Shown here: in pieces, positions 12,250-63,456 of the stretch
Position numbering within the stretch: position 1 is the stretch's first letter
Layout of the letters: every line of letters starts with the position of its first letter
Source: Aureobasidium sp. EXF-3400
Lineage: Eukaryota; Ascomycota; Dothideomycetes; Dothideales; Saccotheciaceae
Reading direction: 5' to 3'
Length of the DNA: 64,000 nucleotides
Assembly (NCBI GenBank): GCA_024195585.1
Contig: SWBL01000151.1
Location: 50,942-114,941, forward strand
Program-made: the position numbers and the translations under genes
The notes under the pieces: model-generated
Database searches by the model: none
What the model was told of the DNA's origin: nothing
The model's input: only the letters and a program-made list of their open reading frames with translations

Positions 12250-12331
12250 CCAAGACTTTTGGCCATGTTGATGACATCTTACTACGCAGCACGGAGGCAT
12301 AATCTGGGTCCCGAGTGGCCAAAAGACTTGG
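12250..12331. repeat. 16-bp inverted repeat at the regulator gene start
   Basis: Bases 12250-12265 (ccaagacttttggcca) pair with 12316-12331 (tggccaaaagacttgg) with one mismatch and a 50-base loop. It surrounds the most upstream possible start codon (12259) of the Zn2Cys6 regulator, so it lies in the leader if the ATG at 12409 is used. Confidence 0.6.
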
Positions 12332-14526: not shown

Positions 14527-15090
14527 TACCAAACCTAGAATATCTCTGGACGGCATTTGCATTGTAGAATTGACATTGTCCCAACCTTGTTCCACGCTTC
14601 GTTCGTTGGGACACGACCGCTCTTGACGTTTCCGCCAGCGATCGTTGTACGACATCTTGGACGCGACGCGCTTTTGTCGGATAAACACGCTGACAGACCA
14701 CGAAAATCTTCAAGTACTGCACGCTGGATCACAAAGCCCTACAACTTGGCGGAGAAAAGATGCTGAGAGCCCTGCTGCATTTGAAAATGCCTATCTGCCA
14801 CCTGAACTTCATCCATCATACGATGCATATGGTCCTATCCAACCCCGCACTTCGTCCAACACACCCTTATCAGCCGATATCGCACAACGATAGAGCGACA
14901 CAATCGCCTTCTGTCGATTCGTGTTAGCCTGCTTATCATACGTGGAGGCCTATCACTGGTTGTGCGACACACAAGTGCCTCGAGTGTGATCCTTGAGAGA
15001 GCATATAAGTACATCCGCTGTAGCTCAGCTTCTCCATCAATAGTATCTCCACAACCTATCAATCCTGCATCCCTACAACCATCGAACAAT
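14527..15090. promoter_or_regulatory. dioxygenase promoter region
   Basis: This 564-base interval between the regulator and the dioxygenase holds no gene. A TATA-like element, catataag, lies at about 15002-15009, some 85 bases upstream of the ATG at 15091, followed by a C/T-rich leader rich in CAACC and CATCC typical of fungal 5' UTRs. Confidence 0.4.
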
Positions 15091-16492: not shown

Positions 16493-18123
16493 TTATCTTT
16501 TAACAGACCCAGAATTGTCTGCACATGACCATGCCGATGTGCCGCCGTCTGAGTTGTAACTGTCGATAATAGAAACAACAGAGCCATAGGTGCCGGCAAC
16601 CATAAGGAACATGCCTGAGACGATGACAAAGATGCACCAAGCCACCATCAAAGTCCACTTGCGTGTACGTTCACCATGCCAATTATCATATAGCCACATG
16701 CAACCATACGGCTGGAAGGAGAGCAGAGTGCCGAGGAGTGCGCCGATGAGAGACACGAGGCCGCCAAAGACAGGAATGGCACTTGCGATGATATAAGAGA
16801 TGATGATAGTGCCGGCAGTACAGCCAAACCAAGTCACCCAGTGAATCGCAGTGTTCTGAGTGACGTGCTTCGTGCCACGCAGTAGGCGAAGGAACACATA
16901 TTTTGCTGGTAACTGGCGACGAATTAGTAGGCTGTTTCCACGTTTTTTGATTTCTAACCTACGTGTGAAAGCAGGATGGTGCTGACGCAAAGTCCCGGTA
17001 GAGCCAAACCGTAGCAGACCTTCTTCATGGTCGCTCCGGCAGATCCCAGTGCAGGGGAGGCAACATATGAGCCACAGAAGTAATAGACCACAACCCCGAT
17101 AGCAACGTATATAGCTGTGACGATTGACTGACAGATGATGAGCGAGCGGGTAAATAGGCGAGGGTCGCGCATCTCAGAAGCAATCGGGAAGAAGCCAGGC
17201 GTGCCAGCGTAGGCAAATACCAAGGACGATATCGCTGATATAGCATCTTCGAATGTGGGGCTGCCGACAATTTTGTAGTCCGACTTCCAGGGGCCAGTCT
17301 GAGGTGCTGCAGCCGGACGGCCTCCCACCCCGACAGCGACTGTCAGAGTCAAGACTTCAATGCGTTAGTCACAACTTCCGAACATTGGTCTAATCGACTT
17401 ACTGGCTGAGATAATTGCGATAACTCCCGCCCATGCGAGCCATGTGATACGGCCCAGCGTCTGAATACTGCAGAAGATGAAGCCAATGATAGCGGCAACG
17501 ACCACGAAGACAGCAGTGCAGGCGCCATGAGTCGAGAGTGCATTGAATGCAATCGAGATGCTGAGCATTCCGGAACCAGCAACAAAGATCCAATCTGCAT
17601 GATTAGCATCAATCCCTCGTATCGGATCAGTCGAACCTCTTTTCTACTCACAAAGAACGTAGGCGACGCCCATCACCTCCCGGCCAATGTTACCAAACAG
17701 CAATCGACCCACATCATCGATTCCATAGACTTCAGGGTGTCTCAGCTTGAATGCACCCACCATGTAGTCTGACCAGGTGGTGATGATAGCGATGACAAGA
17801 AGACAGATGATACCAGGAATCATGCCGAGGACGTCGAAGACTGCTGGGATTGAAAGAACACCCAACCCGATCTGGGTTTTCATCATAAGAGCGACAGTCC
17901 CAAGCCATCCCACCTGTGATCGGTCAGTACGTGAAGAGAAAGCAGTAAATCATGTCCATACGTCGCGATAGTTAGGGCCACCCTCTCCAATATCTCCGAA
18001 GACTGCATCATGGTGCGGATCGAGAATCACGACTTGCCCAACATTGTGAGAGTACGTCAAGCTGAGTTTGTTCTCAGACTTCTCTTCAACCTTTGGCATA
18101 TTTGGTTTCGTGGTGTCAGACAT
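16493..18123 (-). CDS. AAAP-family amino-acid permease, 5 exons
   Basis: Plasma-membrane or vacuolar amino-acid transporter (Aa_trans family, like Neurospora mtr). Exons are 18123-17962, 17913-17653/17652, 17594-17403, 17354-16963 and 16912-16493, giving 475 aa; the four introns are 48-57 nt. About 54 soluble residues precede the first segment, which contains MMKTQIGLGVLSIP, the hallmark first helix of the family. Further blocks are AYAGTPGFFPIASEMRDP and the late SFQPYGCMWLYDNW. Eleven membrane segments are expected and visible. It is transcribed towards the nucleobase genes, but its other neighbour is P5C dehydrogenase, so it may supply proline or hydroxyproline to the catabolic genes that follow. 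Transport specificity is inference. Confidence 0.9.
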
Positions 18124-19059
18124 GATGGTTATGATCGTTGATTGATCGTGAATGGAGGAGTGGTATGGCATGTGGAAGTAGGGAATGAGGTCGGCAATAT
18201 ATCCGACCCAGACCATGTACACATGTATCTTATCATGCCAAGTCGAACGCCTCATGATCACGCGCAGAAGGTGGTCTAGCACTTCGCGAAGCTATCCGAG
18301 CGCTATCTTCCTTCATCCAGAAGATACGGATGTTATCACCACTTCTTGGACTGCTGCACATACTTGAGAAACTCAGATAAAGGAACATCCGAAGTAGCTT
18401 GTAGACAATATGACTCTCTACCAACCAATGGTGTAAGAGCACTTGTATGTCATGCCCCTTATCTCAGCACGTTTGCGAGAGGCTGCTCCGCATGCAACGT
18501 ACAGCCCTACCTGCTCCATATCCAACTGATATGGACGTATCGGTAGACTTGTCCAGACCTTGATGTCATATCTCTCACCTCAATTCATTGTCAACGGCGG
18601 GACAATCGTCCGAGGAGGGCAGGGCAGAAATTCGGCAGCAAAACCGAAGTGACAGCGTACGGAGCAGACCACAATGTTTAGATGTCCGATGCAGTTGCCC
18701 TACCGTAACTAATTCCTATGCCAAATTTCCTTTCCAAAATGCTTCTGTCCCTTTCTCTTCGTTCAAACTCCTGGATTTATCCTGGAGCTGAGTTTGGTTT
18801 AGAGAGCAATACCGGGCTTGTCGTATGTCTGACTATGGCAAAGCAAAGAAGAAAAGCATATACTTCTGCTGCAGGTGAGTTACCAGAAAAGCAATATTGA
18901 GCTGGTACTTCGGAATCATACACATTGTCAAGGACAAGTCACGAAGTCTGCCGACGCTGGATCACAGAGACCCAAGTCACAGGCTTAGAATTTCATGGAT
19001 CTCGGCTATCTAACTCGATCTGATTGAGGATTTTGTGTTGTACACTACATATCAAGTAC
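18124..19059. other. no gene seen; permease promoter
   Basis: These 936 bases are the 5' flank of the permease and the 3' flank of P5C dehydrogenase. Short ORFs are present on both strands, but none shows a domain. Confidence 0.5.
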
Positions 19060-20830
19060 TTAGTAGTTGCTAGGATACAAAACATCGTGCAGCTTGTGAT
19101 ACTCTTCTTTCAGAGTACGAGGAGCGGTGAAACGGACAAGCATGCCAGAGCTTCCTGCTTTGTCATTGGTCCCACTACCACGCGCGCCACCGAAAGATTG
19201 CTGTCCAATGACTGCACCGGTAGTCTTACAGTTGGTATAGAAATTTCCTGCGGCGTAGCGAAGGCGATCCTCGGTCTTGCGGATGACCTCTTGGTCAGTA
19301 GCGAAGATTGCGCCAGTCAAGGCAAAGCCACCACCCTGCTTGTCGATGGCTGTGAGCAAAGAGTCATATTCGGCGTCCGGATAGACGTGAGCGACCAAGA
19401 CAGGACCGAACAGCTCCCTATTGAATAACTCATGGTCGAGCGTCTTGGCAGCGTAGATGGTAGGGTCGATATACAAGCCTTTGCTGCCGTCGTATGTGCC
19501 ACCAACAATTCGCTCGAGGCGACTATCTTTGTTTGCCTCATCGATCGCGGTAGTAATTTTTTTGAAGGCTGCTTCGTTGATGACAGGGCCAGTGAAGCTT
19601 GTGAAGTCTTCAGGCGCACCAACCTTGACATGGCTTAGTTCTTCCTTCATCTCTGACCAGAACTCAGCAGCACGGCTCTCGGGAATGTAGATACGAGAGC
19701 ATGCTGAGCACTTCTGACCCGCATATTCAAATGTAGCGCGGATGGTATGCTTGACTGAGTTGGGGATATCGGCAGAGTTATGAACCAGGTGGAAGTTCTT
19801 GCCCGAAGTCTCGGCGATTATGCGAGGATAGTCGCGGTACTTCTTTGTGCGCACTCCATCAGCAGCTCTAGCATATAGCTCGCGGAACACGTCTGAAGAA
19901 CCAGTAAAGTTGAGGGCAGAAAACTCGGGATGGTCGTAGACAACGTCGGTAACAAGTTCGGCGTCGCCATTAACAAGTTGAATCACATTTGGCGGAAGGC
20001 CAGCCTCAAGCAGAATCTTGTGAACAAGATAACTAGCGTAGACGTTACCAGCAGAGGGTTTCCACAGAACGACATTGCCCATTAAGGCAGGACCGGAGAT
20101 TAGGTTGCCACCAATGGCTGTAAAGTTGAACGGAGAGACAGCATAAACGAATCCTTCTAGCGGGCGCCAGTCGGTGTGGCCAGCCTGGCCAGATGCGTTC
20201 AGTGTTGGTTGTCTTGAGTAGATTTCCTCGGCAAAGCCAACGTTGAATCTGTAAAAGTCGGCCAGCTCAGCTGCGGCATCGATTTCGGCCTGCCAGGCAT
20301 TTTTGCCTTGACCTAGCATAGTTGCGGCCATCAGTTCAAACCGATACTTAGTCGAGACCAGCTCGGCTGCGCGCAAGAAGATAGCGGCTCGATCATGGAA
20401 TGAGGTCTCCTGCCAGGTCTTCTTCGCCTCGAGTGCTGCTGCGATGGCTGCGGCCACATCTTCTTTGGTCGCTGGCGAATAGCGGGCGAACACGGAAGCC
20501 GTCTCTGATGGCATGACCGTCTCCAGTTCCCCTTTGCTCGCGGACTCAACGCCATTCTTGACTGTAGGCACTGACACGGGCAATTCCTTTCTCAACTTTG
20601 CCAAAGCTGCCAATAACTTCTCTCTCTCGGGAGAGGATTGCTCATAGTGAAGCTAAACAAGCGTTAACATCGAGACCATATCTTCGTCCTAAACGACTTC
20701 TTACATTGGGTTCATTATAAGGTTTTGGGATCTTGAATGCTGTAGAAACTGATCGTGCAGGGTATACCCTGGCACCACCGGTTCGCACCAAGTTACGCCT
20801 GAATGTTGTTCGGGAGAGCACGGATTGCAT
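19060..20830 (-). CDS. PUT2: delta-1-pyrroline-5-carboxylate dehydrogenase, mitochondrial
   Basis: Oxidises P5C (as glutamate semialdehyde) to glutamate with NAD+. The same enzyme in animals (ALDH4A1) oxidises 3-hydroxy-P5C to 4-hydroxyglutamate. Exons are 20830-20705 and 20652-19060 with a 52-nt intron, giving 572 aa. The N-terminus MQSVLSRTTFRRNLVRTGG is an arginine-rich mitochondrial presequence; a longer upstream frame lacks that character. Catalytic residues are visible: Glu near 323 in IIAETSGKN and Cys near 357 in EYAGQKCSACSR. The cofactor and family blocks are SPFNFTAIGGN, LWKPSAGN and ALNFTGSSDVF, and the end reads GSSGMLVRFTAPRTLKEEY. The protein appears complete. It is the second step of the proline/hydroxyproline route encoded around it. 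Confidence 0.96.
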
Positions 20831-21791
20831 GTTGGAGAATGGATGAATGAGTGAGACAGTCCCGCTGCCACAGGAATATATGCTGTCTGCACCGGCCGCA
20901 GGACGATTCGGTTTCTCGACCGTGGACAAAAAAACATCCGCTTTCGTATGACCACACTACGTGTTGGATAAGAGCTGGCCGAAGGTGCGGGGCAGCACGT
21001 CGGGATCGCATCCGTAGCGTCCGTCGATCGATGTCACGAAGTAAATCTAGCAGCGAGCAATTGTATCAACAGGCATAGACAAAGAAGTTCTAATTCGGCA
21101 AAAGAATCCAGATGACGCTTTGGTTTGTGCGGCTACTACTCAACGTGTGATAGTTGACATGGCAAATTGTGCCCAGAAAACACCACATACCCGACACCTT
21201 GACAACACTCGGAAGAGACACTTGAGGCTTTATGTCAGACCCAAAGGAATGGATACAAGCATAATGAGCAGGGTGTGTATCGGTAACAGTGGCAGTATGA
21301 ATACAGTGCCAACACACATACCAAGAAGCAGGGTGTTGAATAAACAGGGTCACTGTGTCAACATGTTGCGACAGGCTTTACCGTGTCATCGTGCTCATTG
21401 ACATATGGCAGCCTGCTTGACTTGCAGAGCCATTTGGGAGAGTTGCAACAAGTACAACCAAAGTTCTCTGCACTTGACAGACTCTTGTCATTGATTCTAT
21501 TGCCACAAACACCACTGTTGTTACAAAAGACTCGAACAAACACCCAGGCGGAACCGAAGAGAGACAGGGTAGATCTCAACCTTTCACTCGAGCAACATGC
21601 CCAAGAGCAACAGAGTCAGTCCCGATGTCCAATCCGCAAAAAGGTAGAATACCAATACGTCTGAACAGACCGCAGAAGTACTGACGGAGGAGTTAGCCAC
21701 TTGGCAATTCCATATCGATACCATCACTCTTGCACGCAATTCAACGCAGTTAGTGCATGAGATCAATTCTTGATTCTGAATTCGTATAAGC
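20831..21791. other. no gene seen; P5CDH promoter
   Basis: A 961-base interval with the promoter of P5C dehydrogenase and the 3' flank of the aldolase. A CCGG-CCG stretch occurs at 20892-20898. A 93-codon frame at 21383-21664 (+) shows no family features and was not accepted. Confidence 0.45.
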
Positions 21792-22769
21792 CTACAGAGA
21801 TTCCTCAATTTCTGCCACCTTATCCATAGCAGCCTTTACACCCTGTTTGATCTCCTCATTGACCGAAGCATAAGGATGGCGTGGAGCCAACTTCGCTTCT
21901 GCATCCTCGATACCTGCGGCAGTGGCAGAATAGCAAGCGACTGCATACTTGGTGGAGGCGATACCGCTCTTGCATGGGCTCTCCGCCAACGCTGCTTTCT
22001 GCTGGAGACTCATAGCCTCATCGAACTGTCCGGTCTTATAGAGGTGGTAAATCTTCGAAGTGAGTTTGGGGAACACATTTGCAAAGGCAGCAATGCAACC
22101 AGCGGATCCCGCAGCCAGGCCTCCAATAAGGAAGTCTGACTGACCACCGAATATGGCGAACTCCGAAGGATTGAAGGTCGCGGCCAGCCGAGTGATCTTG
22201 CCCACCGACGCGCACGTCAACTTCACGCCTACGACGTTAGATGTGCCGCTGGTTGCTTTCGACTCTTGAACAATAGCTGTCATAGCTTCCGAGTCGATGT
22301 CCACGCCATTGGTCACACCTGGAAAGTTGTAGATGACAACTGGGAGAGGCGATTGTGCAGCGAAGGTGGCAAAGAAACGCTTCACGACAGCCATAGTGGT
22401 CGCTTTGCCAAAGTATGCAGGAGGAAGCACGAGAACGTAGTCAGCTCCAGCCGCAGCAGCATCTTGCGCCAGTTCCAGGGATTGTTTAGTCGAATGAGCT
22501 CCCACGCCTACCATCAGAGGGTAGTTAGGACCGACGGCTGCGCGAGCGGTGGAGACCAGTTGCTTACGCTCCTCGCGAGTGAGCAAGAAGGCTTCGGAAT
22601 TGGTTCCTAGGATGACCAGACCAGCGAGTCCAGTGGTCGAGAGGTAGGCAAAATAACGAAACTGTGCATCGAGGTCGAGGGAGTCATGTTCATGATTGAA
22701 GAATGTGATTGCAGGGCACCAAACACCAGAAGCAGGGATGCGGGTCTTGGAGCTGGTATGAGATGGCAT
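21792..22769 (-). CDS. 4-hydroxy-2-oxoglutarate aldolase / DapA-family lyase
   Basis: Class I (Schiff-base) aldolase of the dihydrodipicolinate-synthase family, intronless, 325 aa. Visible active-site features are the substrate loop GTNSEAF near residue 55, the catalytic Tyr147 in VIYNFPG and the Schiff-base Lys183 in VVGVKLTC. Fungi make lysine by the aminoadipate route and do not need DapA, so fungal members act in catabolism. Human HOGA1 in this family splits 4-hydroxy-2-oxoglutarate into pyruvate and glyoxylate, the final step of hydroxyproline breakdown. Other family options are sugar-acid aldolases (such as KDG or 2-keto-3-deoxygalactonate). The setting, beside P5CDH and divergent from an aspartate-type aminotransferase, favours the HOG aldolase reading. 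No clear presequence is seen. Confidence 0.88.
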   Translation of the reverse strand: MPSHTSSKTRIPASGVWCPAITFFNHEHDSLDLDAQFRYFAYLSTTGLAGLVILGTNSEAFLLTREERKQLVSTARAAVGPNYPLMVGVGAHSTKQSLELAQDAAAAGADYVLVLPPAYFGKATTMAVVKRFFATFAAQSPLPVVIYNFPGVTNGVDIDSEAMTAIVQESKATSGTSNVVGVKLTCASVGKITRLAATFNPSEFAIFGGQSDFLIGGLAAGSAGCIAAFANVFPKLTSKIYHLYKTGQFDEAMSLQQKAALAESPCKSGIASTKYAVACYSATAAGIEDAEAKLAPRHPYASVNEEIKQGVKAAMDKVAEIEESL

Positions 22770-23376
22770 CTCGTATTTTGAACAAGGACGATTAAATCAG
22801 TACTGGAGTGAGATGTCTGGACGGAAAACAGGAGGTCAAGTTATCATCAAATATCTGATGCTCAGACAAGTCGACATCTGAGATATCATGCGTAAGAAAC
22901 TGCAGGCTCGAGCAGTATTGCCGATACGGGTCACCCTCCGCTTGTCGGGGCATAGTAATGAGCTCTAGTTCACAGTCGGAAGCTGACCCGATAGCAGATA
23001 AATGATTCATCTGCAAGAATATGGGCTCAGAAGGTTCCTCCGAAATCTTGCAGGATGTACTTTCCTCATCTGGCTAATGCTATGTAGTTTGCCGTGAAAG
23101 ATTGGGGCAGCAACTTTGACCAAAGGCTTACAATCCATGGAGAGCAGGTTCCTTGCAACATCAGTTACAACAAGGTAGAAGACGACGCGAAATGCGTTAT
23201 CAATCATCATCCAGCGAAGTATTTCTCGGCAACGATTCCGGGTGGGCGTATCGATCGCCGCCTGCACCACCAATATCGAGCACGTGCAAGACCTGCCGAG
23301 TGGCAATGTATAAGATGTGTAAAATGATATGATAGTTTCGATCACGAGCCGCTGGTACATCCTGCTGCGGACCATT
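22770..23376. promoter_or_regulatory. divergent promoter, aldolase/aminotransferase
   Basis: The aldolase (-) and the aminotransferase (+) start 607 bases apart and share this region. Two GATA cores lie close together at 22990-22993 and 22997-23000 (cgatagcagataaat), the second being a perfect AGATAA, suited to AreA-type nitrogen control. One CCGG occurs at 23238-23241. Function is inferred from motif and position only. Confidence 0.45.
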
Positions 23377-24993
23377 ATGGCTGTTACCTCGAATGCAACC
23401 ATGAGCAATGTCGCAATAACAAAGGCGGAGTCTTGGTTTGCCGCCGCCGAGTATGTTCCACCCGACCCGATCTTTGCATTGACAGCACAATATCTCCGAG
23501 ATTCTTTCCCTCTGAAAGTGAACCTTGGTCAAGGGACCTATCGTGATCATGATGGCAAGCCCTGGGTTCTTCCTTCGGTTCGGCAAGCACGAGAACAACT
23601 CCTTGCAGAGGGCTTGAATCATGAGTATTTGCCCATACTCGGCTTACATGATTTTCGCGAGAGAGCTGCTGAGACTGCTCTTGGATCAACTATATATGCT
23701 GAGAGAGAGAAGGTAAGCTTCGACCGACCTCGACAAGTTGTAATTCTCAAGTACTGATGTCTGACGCTGTTACTCTAGCTTGCAATCTGTCAAAGTCTTT
23801 CTGGTACAGGTGCCTTGCATCTGGTAGGGTTGCTCCTCAAGTCATGTAGAAGACCTCTGCCAAAAGTGTACATCCCAGAGCCTACATGGTCCAACCATCA
23901 CCAGGTGTTCAAATCCTTGGGCTTCGAATGCGAGTCAATTCCATACTACGATTACGAACACAAAACAATAGATTTGGGCTCCTACTTGTCAGTTTTGAAT
24001 AGTGCTGAAGAAGGGTCTATCTTCATCGTCCATGCTTGTGCTCACAACCCCACGGGCTGCGACCCTAGCAAAGCACAGTGGGATGAACTCGGTCAGGTCA
24101 TGAAGCGCAGGAATCTGTTTCCACTATTCGACGCAGCGTACCTTGGTTTCAATTCTGGCGACCTAGATGAAGATGCATTCGCAGTTCGTCATTTCATCGA
24201 TAAACTCAAGTTGGAAGCAGCAGTCTGTGTGTCTTTTGCAAAGAACATGGGCTTGTATGGTGAGTTTGACGGCACATTGGAGTCACAAGCATAAGTTGAC
24301 AATGGCATCTAGGAGAGCGGGTCGGCTGCGTTGTTATAGCTCTGAACAGCCAGGCAGTAGCCAGGAATACCCAATCCACACTGGAGATGCTACAGAGATC
24401 AGAGGTACGAGGAAATCCATGTCTGGACGCGCGGCGATGAGCTGCAGTCACTCAGTTGATCAAAAGCAACCAATAGACGCTGCAAAGGCTTTATATCTGA
24501 ACGCGTGCTGATTAGTCCTCCGCATACAGGTCTCTAATCCGCCTGCATTTGGCGCCAAGATTGCAAGCGTGGTGCTAGGATCAGAGAAACAGAGAAATGC
24601 ATGGTTCGAGGACTTGAAGACTATGAGCAGCCGGATCAGGGTCATGCGCGAAAGTCTCCATGATGCATTGATAGCTTGTGGTCAGTCAATCGCCCATATC
24701 TACCCTGACGTACTTCTAACAGAATCCAGAGGCTCCAGGTTCTTGGGACCACTTGAAACAGCAGACTGGTATGTTTGGATTTTTGGGTCTGTGCCCGGAG
24801 GTTGTCACAAAGCTCAGAGGTAAGCTTTTCGTGGACGTACACATTGGCAAAGCGATACTGAAACACTGTCCCAGAACAACATCACATCTACATGGCGAGC
24901 AATTCTCGGATTTCGATTGCAGGGCTAACTTCGAGCAACGTGCGATATGTTGCCTCTTGCATTAAGGAGTGTTTGGAAGAGGTCACACAATAA
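23377..24993 (+). CDS. aspartate-type aminotransferase, 6 exons
   Basis: PLP enzyme of class I aminotransferases, 422 aa. Exons are 23377-23712, 23779-24259, 24313-24404, 24530-24680, 24730-24819 and 24875-24993; all phases agree. Intron 3 (125 nt) is the longest. Key residues are visible: HACAHNPTG (Asn202), FDAAYLGF (Asp230, pyridine nitrogen), SFAKNMGLYG (Schiff-base Lys267), and SNSRISIAGL (carboxylate-binding Arg) near the C-terminus. The frame is open 16 codons further up (MIVSITSRWYILLRTIM), which could be a mitochondrial presequence. Animal mitochondrial GOT2 of this family converts 4-hydroxyglutamate to 4-hydroxy-2-oxoglutarate, the substrate of the aldolase next door. It therefore looks like a pathway-dedicated paralogue rather than the housekeeping enzyme. 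Confidence 0.92.
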
Positions 24994-25240
24994 TTGTGTT
25001 ATCATAAGTGACTCCCATATGTGCTCGAGATAGGCGAGGTGATAAGATCAACTCGAGTGAGCCAAGGTGCTGGAGATCGGATCCGTAGCCGTAGCCAAAG
25101 CTTGTATGATTGTGTATTTACGGACAAGACGCGGGTAGATAGTAGAAACAAGGTCTCGACATTTCTCTCTACATGAAGACAAGAAGAGCCCTGATGTTTT
25201 CTTGAGCATTGGATATCGTTACTGCACTTGAACCTCGACC

Positions 25241-26198
25241 ATGGAGCAAAGACAGCCGGTCTTGTATGAGCAAAAGACGACCAGTCGTCGGCATTGGAGA
25301 AACCTGGCCGGCGATATCGTCGCTGCCACAGCCTCTGCTGTTCTAATAACGCCCATAGTGGCTATCATCGACAGGTCGGTTCATAATACGTATTGGAAAG
25401 TAACCTATACTTACTCAATGGCGCAGAGCGATCGTGGAGCAGTCATCTACGAGACGCCCAATTCTACAGTGCCTTCGGCTAAACCTATCCAACGCCATCA
25501 GAACGCCTCGCCGCTTTGTCTTCTCTCGGCCGTTCGGCATTGTGTGGACACTGTACGCAGCAACATATGCAGTTGCCAACACGGTCGACACTCTCGCAAC
25601 CTCGAGCGGGAGTGGACACGTCAGTAGCATCGTGCTTGCATCAACGTGTTTGATCAATATCCCACTCGGGGTCTGGAAGGATCTCAGATTCGCCCAGCTT
25701 TTTGGCATCGGGAAGGTTTCCGTAGCAGTCGGTGCTGCTTCCGCAGCAGCGGCAGCACATATCTCTCAACCAAGGCGACTGCCGATATCGGCCACAATGG
25801 TCTTCCTCGCTCGGGACACGCTCACATTGTTTGGTTCGTTCACGTTGGCTCCGTGGCTAGCTGCGTCTTTGCCACATGACTTGACTGCTAATGTCCAGGC
25901 CCAAACCATCTTCACGCAATTGTCTGTGCCAGCTCTGACGCAAATCGGCGCAACACCGCTGCATCTTCTGGGTCTGGACCTCTGCAACACACCCTATCGC
26001 GTGCCTTGGCGGGCAAGGATGATACAGATCTCCCATTCTCTACTCTCGACGACCGCTGTACGGTGTGTCCGCATACTTCCAGCGTTCGGATTCGGATGTC
26101 TTACCAATACTGCCCTGCGAGATTGTCTGCATGACAAACGCGGAAATCCTGATGATGGCATCGACCCGAACAGAGCTGTATTATCTCAATCAACCTGA
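25241..26198 (+). CDS. polytopic membrane protein, function unknown
   Basis: Exons are 25241-25374 and 25427-26198 (52-nt intron, GTCGGT..GCGCAG), giving 301 aa. About six hydrophobic stretches are seen: DIVAATASAVLITPIVAIID, FGIVWTLYAATYAVANTVDT, IVLASTCLINIPLGVWKD, VSVAVGAASAAAAAHI, LTLFGSFTLAPWLAASL and a last one near CVRILPAFGFGCL. Basic residues sit between them (RAIVEQSSTRRP, RTPRRFVFSRP). I do not recognise the family; the layout suggests an organelle inner-membrane protein of a type seen in many filamentous fungi. It lies between the aminotransferase (248 bases upstream, same strand) and P5C reductase (convergent, 47 bases between stops). A role in moving a pathway intermediate across the mitochondrial membrane is only an inference from position. 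Confidence 0.78.
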
Positions 26199-26245
26199 TA
26201 AAGGAATTCAATGACATGATATACGTAGACTCTTCTCATGTCGAA

Positions 26246-27208
26246 CTAATGACGCGTATCATTGACGTGTGAACTGTCATCCATATGCCGAGCAATGGTG
26301 ACTGCTTCTCGAAGTGCGCGCCCAATGTGACCTCGTACCCCTGCTTCTTCCATGACCATGAGACCTCCGATCGTGCAACCTTCTGGTGAGGTTCCTTGAT
26401 CCTTGAGCAGCGCGGGATGGATACCGCTTTGCAGCAATGCAGCAGTGCCCTGCATCGCTTGGAAAGTCATGATATGAGCAGTTGATCTCGGGACGCCGAC
26501 TGCTACAGCAGCATCGATCAAGGCATCACAGATTACAGCGAAAAATGCTGGCGTGGACCCTCCCAATGCCGTCGTTGCGTCCATCAGCTTCGGCTCGATT
26601 TGCACGGTTTTGCCTATCTTCTGAAAAATCGACTCGGTGATTCTCATGTGTGAAGCTGGTGGCGAAGGATCCGATATCTCAATGGCAGTGAGTGATTGAG
26701 AAACTTGTGCTGCGATGTTTGGAAGGGTTCGCACGATGCAGGTGCGGCCTTCCATGTTTCCATCCGTGCATATGTCGCCATAGAGCGCAGTTTCCAACTT
26801 TTGGCGTGTCCAACCAGCTGCCACACTGATCAAAAGCTTATCTTTTAGAGCTTCTCGAAGCCCAGCCTTAGTCAAGACCCTTTGAACAGCCGACGGATCT
26901 ACTGCCAGAATGACAATGTGTGACTCTGATACGGCTTTGACGTTGTCGTTTCTGCAAATAGTGACCTTGTCGTTCAAACGAGTAAACTGTTGCTCCAGGC
27001 GTCGCTGCGAACCCTCGCTTCGTGCGCAAGCTATGAAACGAGTAATTCGCATGTCATCATTTTCGACTGGCTCAGCATTAACCAAGGTACTGAGGATAGG
27101 AGTTCCAAGATTGCCTGTCAAGAATTCTCTGGTCAGCGGCGCATGACCTACAAGCGAGGGGCATTAGATACCGCAACCTAAGAAACACAGCGTGGCGTCC
27201 TTTGGCAT
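26246..27208 (-). CDS. PRO3: pyrroline-5-carboxylate reductase
   Basis: NAD(P)H-dependent reduction of P5C to proline. A 37-nt first exon (27208-27172, MPKDATLCFLGC) is joined through a 57-nt intron to 27114-26246, giving 301 aa. The Rossmann dinucleotide site is completed across the junction (LCFLGCGNLGTPIL). The catalytic-domain signature is visible as the Pro-Gly/Ala-rich stretch GSTPAFFAVICDALIDAAV near residue 195 and GTSPEGCTIGGLMVMEEAGV near 260. The protein appears complete. Reductase of an oxidative pathway is unusual within its gene cluster; it may recycle P5C, remove toxic P5C, or act on a related imine such as a hydroxylated pyrroline carboxylate. Confidence 0.92.
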
Positions 27209-27610
27209 GATGAATTTGGGAGATGTGAAAGTGGCAGATTGCAGTAAGCCTCTTGGAGACGCGTGACCAAAAGTATTCAGCGTCTTCAACAAGTCCAATG
27301 ACTGAAGGCTTGATAGCGGGTGGCCTTCCGGGCTTGGGTGGGGTTGTGGCCCATATCCGGATGACGACTGATAAGGCAAGTCGGAATCCTTCCAAGCGTT
27401 CCGGTACCATCAAAACGACTTACATGCAGAGAAATAAGGTTCAAAGATAAGCGGAAGGTGGACATAGTCTCATACCACTGCCTGCGTGATGACTTGGTGC
27501 CACTCTTGGCATGTCATGTGTGTCTGGAACCGTGAACAGCGCTCATTTTGGAGGAAAGTGTTTGATTGTCTGCATTCTGCTATTGACTATCAACTAGAAA
27601 ATCCAGATAT
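27209..27610. promoter_or_regulatory. P5C reductase promoter region
   Basis: A 402-base gap between proline dehydrogenase (upstream, same strand) and P5C reductase. It carries three CCGG palindromes at 27328-27331, 27357-27360 and 27401-27404. CCGG pairs are the kind of site bound by the proline regulator PrnA in Aspergillus as I recall it, so this is a candidate operator region, not a proven one. Confidence 0.3.
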
Positions 27611-29153
27611 TTAAGATCTGGTGGCAGGAGAGATGAACAAAGCTTTGAACCGTTTCCAAAACTCGGCTCTCAAGGCCTTCAATTCATCTCCTGTCCTCGA
27701 AACTGCATCACGGTTCTCAACAGCTCTCCGAAGCAGATAAGCCAGACACTCGCTCATCGTGCCCCAAGTGGAACACTTGAAGACCTCGGGTGATGAACCC
27801 TTGTTGTCACGCAATTTCAGCAGTCCGAAACTGACCTGATCAGACATGCCCTGCAACTGGGCATACCCAACGGGAACAGTAGGCTCCGTCGCTCTCAGCC
27901 TTTTCTGGTGAAGATTGTGTGCACTGAATACGCTCTGCTTGTTGTGACTGGCTAGAAACAAATTGACCGAAGGGAATGGGCGGCTGCCTTGTGACCCAAA
28001 AGTACCCAGTTGTTGACTTAATGCGCCCTGTGCAATCGTGTCGTATGCATCATCCGTATCTTGCTTGGTATCATGGATCAGGGATCGTTCATCCGAGTTG
28101 ATGTAAGCACCCCTCACAAGCTTCAGGCCAAGAGTAAAACCTTCATCCCTAGCCAGAGTCAGATGTTTCTCCAAGGTCGTCGGGGTACTCTTCAGATAAG
28201 CTTGGTATGTGTTATACACGAGAGCCCGTCCATCGCGGTTGAACTTGCGCATGAGGTCGATGGTAGCGTCCATGATTCCCCATTGGAATCGCTGAGATTC
28301 GGCGTCAACGAGGATACGAGCATTGCGATTCTTACATTCAAGAGCAATCTCGTCAAGAGCATCGAGCATCTGCTGAGGCAACGGTCTTTTTTCAGCGAAC
28401 GCTTTGGTGACCTCTGGACCAGCGCCGGTCAATCTGAATCCACAAGTCAGCAATATGCCTCGGCAGAATTGGAGAGTCGACTTACTTTACTGCAAGATAA
28501 TCTGTCTCACCGAGCAAGTCAATTGTATCGAGCGTGCCTTTGCGCCAGGACTCGATATCGGCATTAACTACCACTTTAGGGTCCAGAGGCAGGGAGTTTT
28601 CTATGGATTCAAGAGCCGCCTCACCAACGCTGTGTTCAGTGCAAGTGCGATGATCAAAGACCGTTTCCTTGGCGAAAGTGAGCAATACTCCCTGGAAACC
28701 TAGGTCCTTGATTTGTTGGCAAGTCTTTTTGGTCTCGCCGCGTGTTTCTCCAGCACAGAACTGGTCGTAAAAAGTCTTCTTCAAAAAGGCATGAATCAGA
28801 GGGTTCTTGTCCACGTTCAGCAGAAATCCTCGACCCGGCTTTGACAGGAATGAGAGGATTGACAAGGAAGGGATGAGTAAGTAGCGCTTGGAAGAAATCG
28901 TTGCCACAAAGAGTGATCTCAAAAGCATCCTCGTTGGCAGAGCTGATAAGTCTCCTTGTTTCGAGCTGGCAATGTGTGACGGTCCAGTGTTAGCATCGGT
29001 TTGCAATGATGACGCGAATCGACGTCCCGATAGCTTTTGCGAGACCTGGACATAAGGCCTAGCCTGAGACCATGAACGAGAGCCTCGAGTGTGGAGAGGA
29101 GGAGTTTTATGTATCAAAGATGACTGAGAAGTTCTGCTTGGGAAGGGGCCCAT
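27611..29153 (-). CDS. PUT1: proline dehydrogenase (possibly hydroxyproline dehydrogenase)
   Basis: FAD enzyme of the mitochondrial inner membrane that oxidises proline to P5C; the animal paralogue PRODH2 acts on hydroxyproline. Exons are 29153-28486 and 28433-27611 with a 52-nt intron, giving 496 aa from the first in-frame ATG. The N-terminal 60 residues are rich in Ser, Arg and His and lack acids, as in a mitochondrial presequence. The PRODH barrel motifs are present: ILVDAESQRFQ, LKLVRGAYINSDERSL, FLASHNKQSVF, YAQLQGMSDQVSFGL, and the FAD/substrate end LLRRAVENRDAVSR with the paired arginines. The protein appears complete. It follows the regulator gene in the same direction (561 bases) and leads into P5C reductase. 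Confidence 0.95.
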
Positions 29154-29714
29154 GATTCGAGGAAAGAGCTGGGACAACGAAGTATGCGTGGCTGGTCAGC
29201 TCGCTGTGGAAACATCGATCTCATATCCTTGACCTCGAGATATGCTGCTTGTACCCCGACCAAAAGAACGCTCATCGGATAGCAAGCCGATGCACGAGAC
29301 GTAGCCTGCAGTGTGGTAGCATTACCCCCGCACGTCGATAGAAAAGCTATCTGCAGATAGTACCAATGATATGCGGATAGGCGGAGCGCAGTCGATCGCA
29401 GGTAGTAAGGATAACCTTCGGAGCTGGGGCTTGTTGGTTCCGCTGAGCGATTTGTATCCGTAGCTTCACCCGCTTGAACGTGCGCCTGGGATATTATTGC
29501 TTGAAACAGCATCAGAAGCCGGTCAAGAGGTAATCTTATAGACGTCAATTTGTGTAATAGATCGTTAAACATTGATATGATGTGGTGTCACATGACGATG
29601 CATATCACCACTTTGAGTAACGCTAGTGTCCATTCAACTTGGTGACCTCCCAGACCATGAGGAGAACATAACCATTCATTGTGCTAGCAAGTGCAATTTG
29701 GAAATCGTCTCTAT
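29154..29714. other. proline dehydrogenase promoter, no gene seen
   Basis: This 561-base interval holds the 3' flank of the regulator and the promoter of proline dehydrogenase. A single CCGG occurs near 29518. No other coding signal is supported. Confidence 0.4.
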
Positions 29715-32199
29715 TTACAGATTTGCCCAGTCAATGCCCTCAAAATCAATTGAATCTGCAACCTGGATCATCTGTTCCGTCGTCATAGTATACTGCCAAT
29801 TGGCATCACTGATATCGCAATCCATGAACGGTGGAAGTATACCTCCAGAGTTCTCGTCGCTAGTCGCGTTGACACGGTTTGATATGCAGGAGTCCGTTAT
29901 ACTAACCTGGCGATGACCCAGGGGCGCGGCTTGACTCAGAATTGTTTCCAGTTGTTGAAGTTCTAGTCTAAGGAAGCCTGCTACTCGGTTTCCACGAGTC
30001 GCCATTTCATCCAGAATACGATATGACAACTCAGCAAGCTGAATTTCCTCGCCCAGCAGAGAGGGGTCAATTACTGCGGCCATCAAGAGAATGACCGTCG
30101 AACTGAATGCAGCGTCGAGGTCAAAAGATAGGAAGCACTCTATATGTCATCAGCTACGATCTGGGGACCGGAGATGAGAAGTCAACGTACCAAGAAGACT
30201 CTCCTCCTGCAACTGAGCCAGTATCTTCAGGTTCTGGAATGCAGACTCGATACACATTATGACTAAAGGCTTGATTCCATCAAAGCGGCGATGATTTGGT
30301 GATCTGGATTGCAGACGTGCTTCCAACAGAGTATACAGTAATGGCCGTGTGGCGAGAATGATGCATTGATGATGGAGGACGTGGAGGTAAGCAGAGAGTC
30401 TCGAGATGCCGAACTCAGAATCGTCGGGAGAGAGCTCGAAACAGCCATGCAGCTGGTCCGTAATGTGTGCGATGTCCTTGAGTGCTTCCTTGATGTGCGA
30501 CACATATTGCCTGTTGAGACGTCCTTCACGGCCGTATACGTCTAAGTGCAGATATCAGCTTCAAAGATTCGAGGGGTGGATAGAGACATACTGTTTGATA
30601 TCTTGGCAATTGCGCGCGACAGTTTTACTTGTATCTCGAGAGCTGTCGCCCTGTACGGCGATTCAAGGTACAAAGGCAATTCTGCACTAATGTCCTCGTC
30701 ACGGATAGACGAAGGAACGCCCATGAGAGAAGACAGTTGCCTGTCCAACACGTACACTGTCCACCAAATCTTACGGCACCTTTGGACGAGTGGTTGTGGA
30801 ACATGCTGACTTTCCATGTTGGTATGCATGCCATGCTCGAGGGCTATGCGAAGTGCTTGACCGATCTGGAACGTAATCAGTCACTTTACAATACAAATCC
30901 TTTGCGCATGAACTGACAAGCTGGTATGCGGGACTGCGAAAGTCTAGTGAGTGCAGGTATAATGTTGCACAGCACAGAATCTCGATTGTCTCGATAGGAT
31001 GCAAGCACAAAAAGGTGACGTCTGGAAGGATTGCCATTGCCTGAACAAAAAATTCTCCTCCCGCTGGTCGTCTGCCTTTCGACGTGCGGGCCAGGAAAGC
31101 CTTCCCGAAAGCCAAGATGAGCAAATAATGAGTGTACCACAATGGCATAAGTCCAGACTTGTCCGCTGCAGGTTTGTGAAAGGTGGAAAACGAGTGCATG
31201 AAGCTCTCTTCATCGAAGAGGTGAAACATCTGACCGACATGGAACTTGGCAGCGTTGATCAGGTATATCGCATGGTCTGCCGTAGGTAAGGTCTTGACAT
31301 CTAAATTCAGAGAAGATTGCCCCGTCCTGAGACCATTCCAGCCAAGGTCGTAGGCTTCAGATTGGAAAAGAAGATTTTGAGGTGATAAAGGAGATCCTAG
31401 TATCTGTTCATGAGACATTGCAAGCACCCGACGGCCGAATGACCAGTTGGAGGACGTTCCGAGATAGACTAAGAAGTTATGTCAATGACCAATCTTTGAA
31501 CCAGATTTCCATCAAGGTTCACTCCCCAAGACCTACCCGGCATGCGACTGGCATGTGGCGTATAACTACATACACCCAATGCTAATGGGTTCATGAGTGC
31601 AGGCTCTGAAGATGATGAGCGTGTCTCAGAGGATACTTGAGGCTCCCTGCTGATGGCGGGTGTGACTGGTGTGACAAGCTGAACCGGCGGAACAGGTTCA
31701 TCCTGGGGGTCGTCGGTAGAGCTGGTCAGGTCGATTTGTGTGTCGTTGACATTATGACTATCGGTTTGAGGACCTTGGACTTCAACTGTAGGAGAGCCAA
31801 GGTATTGTTGTTGAGTGACAGCGTCCGAATTGACTGGATGGTCTGCAGAGGCCAGAAGAAGCTCGGGCTGTCCAGATGCGTCAAAATTTCCTTCGTAAAA
31901 AGCGACCTTGGCTTCCAATTGACTAAGACGACTGTCGCCAGTTAGTGTCGAGAGCGCATATGTTTCACGACGTTTTTTCACCTCTGAGTGACCAGTATCT
32001 TGCGCAGTCTGTCATCGACAGCACAAGTCAGATTCTTCTTGGTGCATTGGTCGCAGGGAAATCCCCCTCTGCACCGAATTTTTTGCTGGCGGCATCGGTC
32101 GCATCTGTTGATTGCTTAGCCGGAATTTGGTCCAAAGTGCTTGACATACGCATTGGGTGCTCTCTTTCTTGCCGAGTTTTGGCCGCCTTGTTTTTGCAT
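29715..32199 (-). CDS. Zn(II)2Cys6 transcription factor, 7 exons
   Basis: Pathway regulator candidate, 722 aa. Exons are 32199-32150, 32104-31982, 31931-31537, 31468-30918, 30865-30592, 30541-30191 and 30139-29715; all phases agree and introns are 45-68 nt. The zinc cluster is split by the first intron and reads APNACDRCRQQKIRCRGGFP, then CDQCTKKNLTC, preceded by a basic start (NSARKRAP). A leucine-type linker (RLSQLEAKVAFYE) follows. The fungal_trans domain is evident in VGQMFHLFDEESFMHSF and RKIWWTVYVLDRQLSSLMG. The C-terminus ends FEGIDWANL, an acidic-aromatic tail. It sits directly upstream of proline dehydrogenase, as prnA sits in the Aspergillus proline cluster, and is divergent from the flavoenzyme gene. 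Confidence 0.9.
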
Positions 32200-32557
32200 G
32201 GTTGAGAGGTGTTTGACAGCATCGGCAAGGCATCCGGCCCTTTTTGTCTCCTTGCGTGGTCAGCTTTGGCCGCGTCGGCCCCTTACCCCGCCCACGTCTG
32301 CGATAAGCCCCGCTCCACCTGCTTGGCACAAGACGACTCCCGCTTAGGTTCTTCGTTTCTGGCAAGGTTTCGGACACAGTATAGCTTCTACGACAGCATA
32401 TCATGCATCGTGGCCCACCGGATACCTTTCCGGAAGGTCTAAAGGGCGCTATCTTCCTTGCCTCCACGAGACTCAACTCCTGAACAGGATAAGAGAGTGA
32501 TGGTAGAACCCTCGGGTCAGACAACTATCACAAGAGCATACTCAATCATCCTCAACC
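32200..32557. promoter_or_regulatory. divergent promoter, regulator/flavoenzyme
   Basis: This 358-base interval separates the two start codons. It contains a CCGG-N8-CCGG arrangement at 32418-32433 (within caccggatacctttccggaa) and another CCGG at 32234-32237. Such CCGG pairs are typical binding sites of Zn2Cys6 dimers, so autoregulation is possible. Confidence 0.4.
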
Positions 32558-33939
32558 ATGTCAGACAAGCAAGCACCAATCTTCATCCTTGGTGGCGGCG
32601 CGTGGGGCCTCTCGACCGGGCTGCATCTGAGCCGCGCTGGTCATACAAACATCACAGTCTTCGAACGAGCAGAGACGATACCGTCACCATACTCGGCAGC
32701 TTATGATCTGAACAAGATCATACGGCCCGGGTACGAAGACTCGTTCTACACAGACTTGGCTCTTGTAAGTTGCGGCGTTTCCAGGTGCCTAATATCAAAA
32801 TTCCGCTGACGAAAACGATGAAGGAAGCCATAGAAGCCTGGAAGACGCCGCTGTTTGGCCCTTACTTCCATCAGACCGGCTATATTGTTGCCACGACTGG
32901 CGCTGCTCCCCCAAAAGCCATTCATCATCTACAGGCTGCTCTTGAGACTATACAAGCGAATCCCGTGTTCAAGTATAAGATAACACCTTTGACTGGGAAG
33001 AAAGAATTCCAAGACTTCGCATGGCAGTTTTCGGGCCCGCTGAACGGCTTCCAGGGCTACTTCAACCGCCTAGCAGGTTACGCTCACTCCTCGAATGCAC
33101 TTCATGGTATCTGGCTGTATCTAGCCGCCAACGGTGTAAAGTTCATCCTCGGTGATCGTGCCGGGAAGGTTCAGGAACTGCTGTATGACAGCGATTCACC
33201 TTCTGCTGATCGCCGGTGCATCGGTGTCAGGACTGCGGACGGCAGAGTTCATTATTCTAAGACTACCATCTGTGCTCTGGGTGCTCACGCTGCTTCCCTA
33301 ATCCCGAGTCTGGGCCGCTTCGCGATAGCTAGGTGCTGGTCTGTCGCGCATGTACAGCTGACTGCATCCGAGGTCGATCTTCTGCGTGGTCTGCCAACAA
33401 CCAACGTGCGTGATTTGGGCTTCTTCTTCGAACCGGATCCCGAGACACGCCTCTTCAAGCTTTGCCCTCTTGGTGCGGGCTATACCAACACACTAGAGTC
33501 TGGCTTGTCTATCCCACCAGCTGATCGGCTGCCACCTCCGCAGGACTTCATTCCAGCTGCTGACGAACTTAAGCTGCGTAAACTTCTACAAGAAGTGTTC
33601 CCTTGGATGGCAGACCGACCTTTCGTCGACCAGAAATTATGCTGGTTCGCGGATACGATCGATTCGGACTTTTGCATAGACTTTGTGCCAAATTCGCAGA
33701 AGTCACTTGTGGTCCTGTCAGGCGACTCCGGACATGGTTTCAAGATGATGCCAACCCTCGGCTCGTGGGTGGTGCATTTATTGGAACGCGAAGAGCAGAC
33801 TGAAGCCCGTTGGCGCTGGAAGGACATCGATACCAGATCACAGGATTGGGCCGCCGCAGTGAGCTGGCGTATCGGCGAGACAAAGGAGCTCAAGGATCTG
33901 ATAGCAGATAAGAAGCGACAGGAACAAGCACGATTGTAG
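32558..33939 (+). CDS. FAD-dependent amine/imino-acid oxidase (sarcosine/fructosyl-amine oxidase type)
   Basis: Flavoprotein of the DAO/MSOX superfamily, 440 aa. Exons are 32558-32764 and 32824-33939 (59-nt intron). The N-terminal FAD fold is FILGGGAWGLSTGLHLSRAG with the acidic strand end TVFER. The family block YDLNKIIRPGYEDSFYTDLA follows, as in fructosyl-amino-acid and L-pipecolate/saccharopine oxidases. The Cys in KLCWFADTIDSDFCID corresponds to the flavin-linking cysteine of that group. The C-terminal FAD contact is SGDSGHGFKMMPTLG. Members oxidise secondary amines and cyclic imino acids. In this setting N-methylproline, pipecolate, a glycated amino acid or a hydroxyproline isomer are candidates. 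There is no obvious C-terminal peroxisomal tripeptide (it ends QARL; ARL is a weak PTS1 variant). Confidence 0.88.
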
Positions 33940-63254: not shown

Positions 63255-63320
63255 AAGCTATTAGCTTTATAAATTTCCTAGTAGGGTAAGCTATTAGCTT
63301 TATAAATTTCCTAGTAAGGT
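63255..63320. repeat. 33-bp direct repeat, two copies
   Basis: A 33-base unit beginning aagctattagctttataaat occurs at 63255 and again at 63288, differing at one base near the end (gtaggg versus gtaagg). It sits inside the AT-rich block. Confidence 0.85.
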
Positions 63321-63456
63321 AACTAAAATATATTAGCTATCCGTTTTTAGAGAATATCTATATAGAAGATGTTATTATACTTAGCTCGAATAGATAACCT
63401 TATAAATACTATAGTAGATAGGCAATATTTAAGTACTAACCTTAGATATAATAAAG

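What the first reader, a model, noticed from the sequence alone, without database searches (positions are those of the whole stretch)
19060..33939. Candidate trans-4-hydroxyproline catabolic gene cluster with all four pathway enzymes
Side by side lie P5C dehydrogenase, a HOG-aldolase/DapA-type lyase, an aspartate-type aminotransferase, and proline dehydrogenase. In animals these four activities (PRODH2, ALDH4A1, GOT2, HOGA1) convert trans-4-hydroxy-L-proline to pyruvate and glyoxylate. A Zn2Cys6 regulator, P5C reductase, an imino-acid-oxidase-type flavoenzyme, an unknown membrane protein and a flanking amino-acid permease (16493-18123) complete the set. The classical fungal prn cluster has only proline steps; adding an aldolase and an aminotransferase makes hydroxyproline the natural substrate, which is abundant in collagen and plant extensins. 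The genes and their order are seen; the pathway is inference. I do not know whether it has been described.
Basis: partly seen in the sequence, partly recalled or inferred. Interest (0 to 1): 0.92.

Follow-up and report, generated by a model that had tools for sequence, protein, structure and literature searches.

The report
Fungal hydroxyproline-degradation gene cluster
A black yeast carries, twice over, a compact set of genes that most likely lets it eat hydroxyproline, the amino acid of collagen and plant cell walls, by the chemical route animals use, and its first enzyme has lost the residue that normally keeps hydroxyproline out.

Summary
An eight-gene block (permease, P5C dehydrogenase, DHDPS-family lyase, aspartate-type aminotransferase, P5C reductase, proline dehydrogenase, Zn2Cys6 regulator, FAD oxidase; 16493-33939) is real, and the same eight genes lie collinear on a second contig (C74) of this diploid-sized Aureobasidium genome while the flanks do not follow.

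The best new evidence for hydroxyproline is in the proline dehydrogenase. The tyrosine that in E. coli PutA favours proline over hydroxyproline (Tyr540) is Cys in both cluster copies and Cys or Ser in all 119 scorable of the 120 listed relatives, but Tyr in the prn-like copies elsewhere in the genome. In other fungi, indirect signs link pairs of these genes: PRODH and aminotransferase on contigs of equal length in 11 of 32 shared species, lyase and aminotransferase in 5 of 13, and eight gene models that fuse PRODH with P5C reductase.

Limits: the HOG-aldolase residues do not separate this lyase from its paralogs; PRODH and lyase shared a contig in 0 of 16 species; no enzyme has been assayed. 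The membrane gene is not core; the FAD enzyme resembles fructosyl-amine oxidases. I found no such fungal trans-4-hydroxyproline cluster in the open papers searched. New variant of a known kind.

The parts
16493..18123 (-). amino-acid transporter, Aa_trans family (PF01490); probable importer of the substrate
   Evidence: Pfam on two exon pieces; 73% DNA identity to C74:91045-92455; exons not fully modelled
19060..20830 (-). P5C (glutamate-gamma-semialdehyde) dehydrogenase, 572 aa, exons 20705-20830 and 19060-20652
   Evidence: TIGR01236 695 bits over cut-off 614; model; 86% to the C74 copy; to the prn-like copies on C67/C510 70-72% over residues 202-571 and 51-58% over the first 200; 57-58% to C382/C369
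21792..22769 (-). DHDPS-family class I aldolase, proposed 4-hydroxy-2-oxoglutarate aldolase, 325 aa, single exon
   Evidence: PF00701; best PDB match 3qfe (460 bits), next human HOGA1 3s5o (about 100 bits) and a bacterial DHDPS (98 bits); 82% to the C74 copy
23377..24993 (+). aspartate-type aminotransferase, 422 aa, six exons
   Evidence: best PDB match 1yaa aspartate aminotransferase, 376 bits, active-site motifs aligned; model; 65-79% to C74 exons
25241..26198 (+). membrane-protein gene inside the block, probably not part of the pathway
   Evidence: no Pfam match; no counterpart found on C74; paralogs on C37/C10 (54-55%) and C251/C51 (36%)
26246..27208 (-). P5C reductase paralog, 312 aa; main exon 26246-27147, first exon 27172-27208 doubtful (24-base intron)
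   Evidence: TIGR00112 210 bits over cut-off 197; model; a stronger ProC-type pair lies on C49/C81
27611..29153 (-). proline-dehydrogenase-family enzyme, proposed hydroxyproline dehydrogenase, 496 aa, exons 28486-29153 and 27611-28433; Cys (KCSTWG) at the PutA Tyr540 position
   Evidence: PF01619; model; motif and spacing
29715..32104 (-). Zn2Cys6 transcription factor (Zn cluster 32023-32103), proposed pathway-specific activator; exons not fully modelled
   Evidence: motif read; Fungal_trans PF04082 precomputed on A. melanogenum models that fuse this gene with PRODH (sequences); 69% DNA identity on C74
32558..33939 (+). FAD oxidase of the fructosyl-amine/sarcosine oxidase group, 440 aa, exons 32558-32764 and 32824-33939; C-terminal ARL
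   Evidence: PF01266; best PDB matches fructosyl amine oxidases 5oc3/4wct, 163 bits; model; C-terminal ARL kept on C74

Best explanation
A dedicated catabolic gene cluster for trans-4-hydroxy-L-proline that follows the animal route. Steps: the permease imports the substrate; the Cys-type PRODH acts as hydroxyproline dehydrogenase giving 3-hydroxy-P5C; the cluster P5C dehydrogenase gives 4-hydroxyglutamate; the aspartate-type aminotransferase gives 4-hydroxy-2-oxoglutarate; the DHDPS-family lyase splits that into pyruvate and glyoxylate; the Zn2Cys6 protein switches the set on. Shown here: the genes, their families, gene models, the Tyr-to-Cys difference, the second copy of the block, and indirect signs of linkage of gene pairs elsewhere. 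Inferred: substrate, order of steps, regulation. Unassigned: why a P5C reductase is included (perhaps to turn surplus hydroxy-P5C back into hydroxyproline) and what the FAD oxidase, perhaps peroxisomal by its ARL end, adds.
For: Active site: in PutA, Tyr540 lies 15 residues before Arg555 (checked on MG1655 PutA). At that spacing the cluster copies on C151 and C74 have Cys, the prn-like copies next to a P5C dehydrogenase on C67/C510 have Tyr, and of the 120 listed homologs (best of 1048 hits) 117 have Cys, 2 Ser, and one, P0066, escaped the pattern but reads KCSTWG. [quoted passage not shown] Extra copies: other PRODH, P5CDH, ProC, AspAT and DHDPS genes lie elsewhere. Second copy of the block with unrelated flanks, proteins conserved. 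Linkage in other fungi: PRODH and aminotransferase on contigs of identical length in 11 of 32 shared species, expected 1.6-2.3; lyase and aminotransferase in 5 of 13, all five Penicillium, expected 1.0-1.3; 8 of 120 PRODH hits are gene models fused PRODH-then-P5CR, in the order found here. Chemistry: a pyruvate-type aldolase after PRODH, P5CDH and a transaminase is explained by a 4-hydroxyl group (established pathway knowledge; HOGA1 mechanism read in passages of PMC3188589).
Against: PRODH and lyase shared a contig in 0 of 16 shared species, A. melanogenum with its short contigs included, so the complete set is seen only in this genome's two copies. The lyase residues resembling HOGA1 (Asn78, hydroxyl at 198) are also in the five other paralogs of this genome that I read, so they do not identify the substrate. 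Ser77 is Thr here, a change that lowered HOGA1 activity; Ser198 is Thr, a change that raised its KM 7-fold at a comparable kcat. The lyase is below the cut-off of all seven NCBIfam models it matched, and source names of its relatives are split between 4-hydroxy-2-oxoglutarate aldolase and 2-keto-3-deoxy-L-rhamnonate aldolase. Cys at the Tyr540 position also occurs in a second PRODH pair (C103/C169) with no lyase or aminotransferase beside it in the 10 kb fetched, so Cys alone does not prove hydroxyproline. A P5C reductase would work against catabolic flow. No glyoxylate-disposal gene was recognised in the block. No expression or enzyme data.
Confidence: 0.75

Rival explanations
1. An extra proline-utilisation (prn-type) cluster, with lyase and aminotransferase along for other reasons: PRODH and P5CDH take proline to glutamate, which the aminotransferase turns into 2-oxoglutarate.
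For: PRODH, P5CDH, P5CR, Zn2Cys6 and permease are parts expected for proline metabolism; the cluster P5CDH is 70-72% identical over residues 202-571 to the copies beside PRODH on C67/C510.
Against: A PRODH+P5CDH pair with the proline-type Tyr lies on C67/C510; the cluster PRODH is only about 26-41% identical to the other copies and the Tyr is absent in all 119 scorable listed relatives; proline use needs no pyruvate aldolase, yet lyase and aminotransferase lie together here, on C74, and on contigs of equal length in 5 of 13 shared species, all five Penicillium.
Confidence: 0.1
2. A bacterial-type hydroxyproline route: epimerisation, oxidation of cis-4-hydroxy-D-proline by the FAD enzyme, deamination by the DHDPS-family protein, and oxidation of 2-oxoglutarate semialdehyde by the dehydrogenase.
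For: The block has a DAO-type FAD enzyme, a DHDPS-family protein and an aldehyde dehydrogenase; a proline-racemase-family gene pair exists in the genome (C83/C13).
Against: The racemase-family genes found are not on C151 or C74; the dehydrogenase is over the cut-off for P5C dehydrogenase (695 against 614) and far under that for a ketoglutarate-semialdehyde dehydrogenase (169 against 770); PRODH and aminotransferase would have no role.
Confidence: 0.05
3. A cluster for a related compound: another 4-hydroxylated or 4-substituted proline or ornithine derivative, or sugar-conjugated (Amadori) hydroxyproline that the FAD enzyme first releases.
For: The FAD enzyme is closest to fructosyl-amine oxidases and is kept in both copies with a peroxisomal-type end (signal recalled).
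Against: I found no sequence feature that points to one such compound, and most of these would still converge on hydroxyproline or 4-hydroxyglutamate (inference).
Confidence: 0.1

Closest known systems
Animal mitochondrial 4-hydroxyproline pathway (PRODH2/HYPDH, ALDH4A1, GOT2, HOGA1)
   Same: the same four enzyme families in the same inferred order; loss of the proline-enforcing Tyr in the first enzyme (that human PRODH2 has Ser there is recalled, not checked by a call)
   Different: genes clustered with regulator and permease; Cys, not Ser; lyase only distantly related to HOGA1 (about 100 bits); extra P5C reductase and FAD oxidase
Fungal prn proline-utilisation cluster (Aspergillus nidulans prnA-D; recalled)
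   Same: PRODH, P5CDH, Zn2Cys6 regulator and permease side by side
   Different: adds aminotransferase and lyase; Aa_trans-type permease; a Tyr-type PRODH+P5CDH pair is present separately on C67/C510
Bacterial trans-4-hydroxyproline clusters (hydroxyproline 2-epimerase, D-Hyp dehydrogenase, Pyr4H2C deaminase, KGSA dehydrogenase; members recalled, in part in passages of PMC5144071)
   Same: hydroxyproline as substrate; a DHDPS-family member and an aldehyde dehydrogenase
   Different: no epimerase match on C151, dehydrogenase is P5CDH, end products inferred to be pyruvate and glyoxylate, not 2-oxoglutarate
Fungal 3-hydroxyproline genes: an LhpI (aconitase X) homolog beside a putative trans-3-hydroxyproline dehydratase in Aspergillus niger (passages of PMC5144071)
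   Same: a fungal gene neighbourhood for a hydroxyproline isomer
   Different: 3-hydroxy isomers and dehydratases; none of the four steps proposed here

Membership tests
Proline dehydrogenase superfamily (PF01619) | Pro_dh domain with C-terminal RR(x2)EN substrate-carboxylate motif | tested here: met
   PF01619 164 bits; LLRRAVEN present
Proline-specific PRODH | Tyr at the PutA Tyr540 position | tested here: not met
   Cys in both cluster copies; Tyr in C67/C510 copies
Hydroxyproline dehydrogenase (HYPDH-like) | small residue in place of Tyr540 | tested here: met
   Cys; Cys 117 and Ser 2 of 119 scorable relatives, 120 examined
Hydroxyproline dehydrogenase (HYPDH-like) | turnover of trans-4-hydroxy-L-proline in preference to proline | not testable with these tools
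   needs an enzyme assay
P5C dehydrogenase (ALDH4A1) | equivalog-level profile match | tested here: met
   TIGR01236 695 bits, cut-off 614
Aspartate aminotransferase (GOT type) | PLP lysine and both carboxylate-binding arginines | tested here: met
   SFAKN, QRSEVSNPP and RISIAGL align with yeast-type aspartate aminotransferase 1yaa; residue roles and the organism of 1yaa recalled
4-hydroxy-2-oxoglutarate aldolase (HOGA1) | Schiff-base Lys, catalytic Tyr, Asn78 and Ser198 for substrate binding | tested here: inconclusive
   Lys, Tyr and Asn kept, Ser198 and Ser77 are Thr; Asn and Thr198 also in the five other paralogs read
4-hydroxy-2-oxoglutarate aldolase (HOGA1) | cleavage of HOG to pyruvate and glyoxylate | not testable with these tools
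   needs an enzyme assay
prn proline cluster | proline-type PRODH next to P5CDH without aldolase | tested here: not met
   Cys-type PRODH and an aldolase here; Tyr-type pair elsewhere
Bacterial hydroxyproline cluster | hydroxyproline 2-epimerase (PF05544) in the cluster | tested here: not met
   matches only on C83 and C13

The most novel reading that the evidence does not exclude
Filamentous ascomycetes evolved their own hydroxyproline dehydrogenase by replacing the proline-enforcing tyrosine with cysteine, apart from the animal change, and built pathway-specific clusters around it. In Aureobasidium all four steps, import and control are joined; in other lineages only pairs stay linked. This would give a gene-level basis for fungal use of collagen and plant cell-wall hydroxyproline.
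Probability: 0.6. Interest if true: 0.65.

Novelty: new variant of a known kind. Interest (0 to 1): 0.58.

Why it matters
Hydroxyproline is a major amino acid of collagen and plant extensins, and at least one fungus grows on it (Aspergillus fumigatus as a nitrogen source: passages of PMC2526178), but my searches of the open literature showed no fungal gene set for the 4-hydroxy isomer. The finding gives named genes and one residue to test, offers a marker (Cys-type PRODH beside aminotransferase or lyase) for finding the pathway in other fungal genomes, and would make fungal glyoxylate production from animal and plant matter testable.

Tried and rejected
Tried: using HOGA1 active-site residues to identify the lyase substrate; rejected because Asn78 and a hydroxyl at 198 are present in all seven own-genome loci aligned, that is the two cluster copies and five other paralogs. 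L007 gave no usable frame, the four loci fetched were not examined for residues, and C10 and C391 were not fetched. Tried: an adjacent 2OG-Fe(II) oxygenase (14806-16131) as a proline hydroxylase that would tie it to the cluster; its best PDB match is thymine dioxygenase and it has no match on the C74 stretch, so left out. Tried: the PRODH tree (13 of the 120 listed relatives); the cluster clade separates from the three other pairs of this genome, but its fork (81/98) is below the tool's high-support mark and the PutA branch is very long, so the tree is illustration only. Tried: dN/dS ratios between the two copies; synonymous sites are saturated, so no ratio is given. Tried: literature on A. 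fumigatus proline oxidase Afu3g02300; reported as more abundant in the infection data, but whether it is the Cys type was not tested. Tried: papers on the Tyr/Ser difference of PRODH2; only the PutA Tyr540 statement was found. The idea that C74 is simply the other subgenome's copy of the region: DNA identity (65-78%) resembles that of C67/C510 (70-77%), so the copies may come from the two parents, but the flanks do not correspond.

Species identity: the window's last base is position 114941 of its contig, the same number as the longest contig of P0247, Aureobasidium sp. EXF-12298; that the contig ends there is inferred. Passages of PMC9430960 list EXF-12298 as a refrigerator isolate from Sweden, strain M, one of the diploid ones. 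Passages of PMC8401163 call it A. subglaciale.

Rows dropped: the contig comparison used 113 of 120 PRODH rows, 60 of 120 lyase rows and 98 of 120 aminotransferase rows, typed by hand; dropped were rows without a species name and 22 aminotransferase rows of species absent from the other two tables. Strains of one species were pooled. Contig lengths are each protein cluster's longest contig, so an equal length is a sign, not a proof, of the same contig; several are contigs of megabases. The chance calculation assumes random placement in genomes of 25-35 Mb.
Full report
WHAT IS THERE. The window lies on contig C151 of a 53.4 Mb, 717-contig genome. Its last base is position 114941, the same number as the contig length listed for Aureobasidium sp. 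EXF-12298, which holds a close copy of the cluster aminotransferase; passages of PMC9430960 list that strain among diploid A. subglaciale-related isolates. The four other contig pairs compared show 69-85% DNA identity, as expected of a hybrid diploid.

GENE MODELS. Reading frames with GT-AG introns were obtained for P5C dehydrogenase (19060-20830), lyase (21792-22769, no intron), aminotransferase (23377-24993, six exons), P5C reductase (26246-27208) and PRODH (27611-29153), and for the FAD enzyme (32558-33939). The P5C reductase model needs an intron of only 24 bases, so its first exon is doubtful. Family assignments; permease Aa_trans; Zn2Cys6 motif at 32023-32103. Permease and regulator exons were not fully modelled.

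A UNIT PRESENT TWICE. Aligning the whole window with 40 kb of contig C74 gave matches over 100 bases only to permease, P5CDH, lyase, aminotransferase, P5CR, PRODH, regulator and FAD enzyme, in the same order, at 65-78% identity. Of the window's flanks, the left matches C171, C657 and C43 and the right has two short matches, on C171 and C184. The membrane gene (25241-26198) has no counterpart found on C74 and belongs to a small family with two other pairs elsewhere. In the six genes measured, synonymous differences are saturated and nonsynonymous divergence is 0.08 (P5CDH) to 0.24 (aminotransferase): both copies are being kept as proteins.

EXTRA COPIES. The genome has other PRODH genes (pairs C67/C510, C8/C150, C103/C169), other P5CDH genes (C67/C510 beside PRODH, and C382/C369), a stronger ProC-type pair (C49/C81), other aspartate-aminotransferase-type matches at 31-48% identity and twelve other places with DHDPS-family matches. 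The cluster therefore holds an extra copy of each function.

THE KEY RESIDUE. In E. coli PutA, Tyr540 precedes Arg555-Arg556 by 15 residues. [quoted passage not shown] At this position C67/C510 have Tyr, C151 and C74 (the clusters) Cys, C103/C169 Cys, C8/C150 Leu. Of 120 listed homologs of the cluster PRODH, 117 have Cys, 2 Ser, and one (P0066) missed the pattern but reads KCSTWG. They carry names from Aureobasidium, Aspergillus, Penicillium, Talaromyces, Colletotrichum, Fusarium, Alternaria and others. Only the best 120 of 1048 hits were visible. That human PRODH2 has Ser here is recalled.

OTHER ENZYMES. The aminotransferase aligns along its length with aspartate aminotransferase 1yaa and keeps the motifs bearing the PLP lysine and the two carboxylate-binding arginines (roles recalled). 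The lyase is closest to structure 3qfe (460 bits; a Coccidioides protein, recalled), named only as a putative DHDPS-family protein, and then, much more weakly, to human HOGA1 (100.7 bits) and a bacterial DHDPS (98.4 bits). Passages of the HOGA1 paper (PMC3188589) name Lys196, Tyr168, Ser77, Asn78 and Ser198. Here they are Lys, Tyr, Thr, Asn and Thr. The five other paralogs read share Asn and the Thr at 198, so this does not settle the substrate. All 120 listed lyase relatives match a cluster copy best among the twelve own-genome loci compared (window copy 108, C74 copy 12), so they form the group to which the cluster lyase belongs; their source names are split between HOG aldolase, 2-keto-3-deoxy-L-rhamnonate aldolase and unspecific names. 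The FAD enzyme resembles fructosyl-amine oxidases and ends in ARL in both copies, a peroxisomal-type signal (recalled).

LINKAGE IN OTHER FUNGI. No fungal genome collection was available, so I used indirect signs. Eight of 120 PRODH hits carry P5CR domains after the PRODH domain (four Colletotrichum, and Zopfia, Annulohypoxylon, Paramyrothecium, Kalmusia), in the order and orientation of the window; four carry the regulator domain PF04082, and two more A. melanogenum entries are fused to the same regulator sequence. Comparing contig lengths by species: PRODH and aminotransferase share one in 11 of 32 species, including contigs as short as 28, 75 and 124 kb and as long as 3.9 Mb; expected 1.6-2.3 for genome sizes of 25-35 Mb, P 1e-6 to 3e-8. 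Lyase and aminotransferase: 5 of 13, all five Penicillium, expected 1.0-1.3, P 0.0008-0.004, one on a 297 kb contig and four on contigs of 3.5-9.4 Mb. PRODH and lyase: 0 of 16. The sum is partial linkage in different combinations, with the full set seen only in this genome.

MECHANISM. Hydroxyproline to 3-hydroxy-P5C (PRODH), to 4-hydroxyglutamate (P5CDH), to 4-hydroxy-2-oxoglutarate (aminotransferase), to pyruvate and glyoxylate (lyase). A pyruvate aldolase at the end makes sense if the proline carries a 4-hydroxyl; proline itself needs none. This is inference from established chemistry; no step is shown by assay.

PRIOR WORK. Seven searches of the open paper library aimed at fungal hydroxyproline genes (the last showed 20 of 31 papers) listed no title about a fungal 4-hydroxyproline catabolic cluster. 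Nearest: a bacterial paper that also reports a fungal LhpI homolog beside a putative trans-3-hydroxyproline dehydratase gene in A. niger (PMC5144071, passages), and an A. fumigatus transcript study using hydroxyproline as nitrogen source, with clustered gene responses but no pathway named in the passages read (PMC2526178). The vertebrate review PMC8779045 holds no occurrence of 'fung' or 'yeast'. Subscription papers and preprints are mostly not in that library, and supplements were not read, so a description elsewhere is possible.

VERDICT. Observation confirmed; hydroxyproline reading supported at about 0.75; a new fungal variant of a known pathway and of a known kind of gene cluster.

Noticed in passing
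G000:C103:102198-103589 and C169:20551-21862 (loci L036, L035): A second PRODH pair in the same genome also has Cys at the Tyr540 position (KCMNWG) but no lyase or aminotransferase match within the 10 kb fetched.
   Followed up: partly
G000:C8:259046-260317 and C150:46798-48069 (loci L033, L034): A further PRODH pair has Leu at the Tyr540 position (KLTAWG), suggesting yet another substrate.
   Followed up: no
window 14806-16131 and 12250-14526: 2OG-Fe(II) oxygenase (nearest solved structure thymine dioxygenase) and another Zn2Cys6 regulator just left of the block; neither matched the C74 stretch.
   Followed up: partly
window 49800-51368: A 522-aa frame with a 2OG-FeII_Oxy_3 domain, a family that includes prolyl 4-hydroxylases (recalled), about 16 kb from the hydroxyproline block.
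   Followed up: no
window 34553-35164: Cytochrome P450 piece immediately right of the block, with no match on the C74 stretch.
   Followed up: no
window 62000-64000: The window ends in a stretch of 25% G+C with a 33-base tandem repeat, looking like AT-rich mutated repeat DNA.
   Followed up: no
window 45890-48676: A long Ser/Thr/Ala-rich frame with internal repeats of 66 and 120 bases and no Pfam match, resembling a repetitive wall-anchored protein.
   Followed up: no
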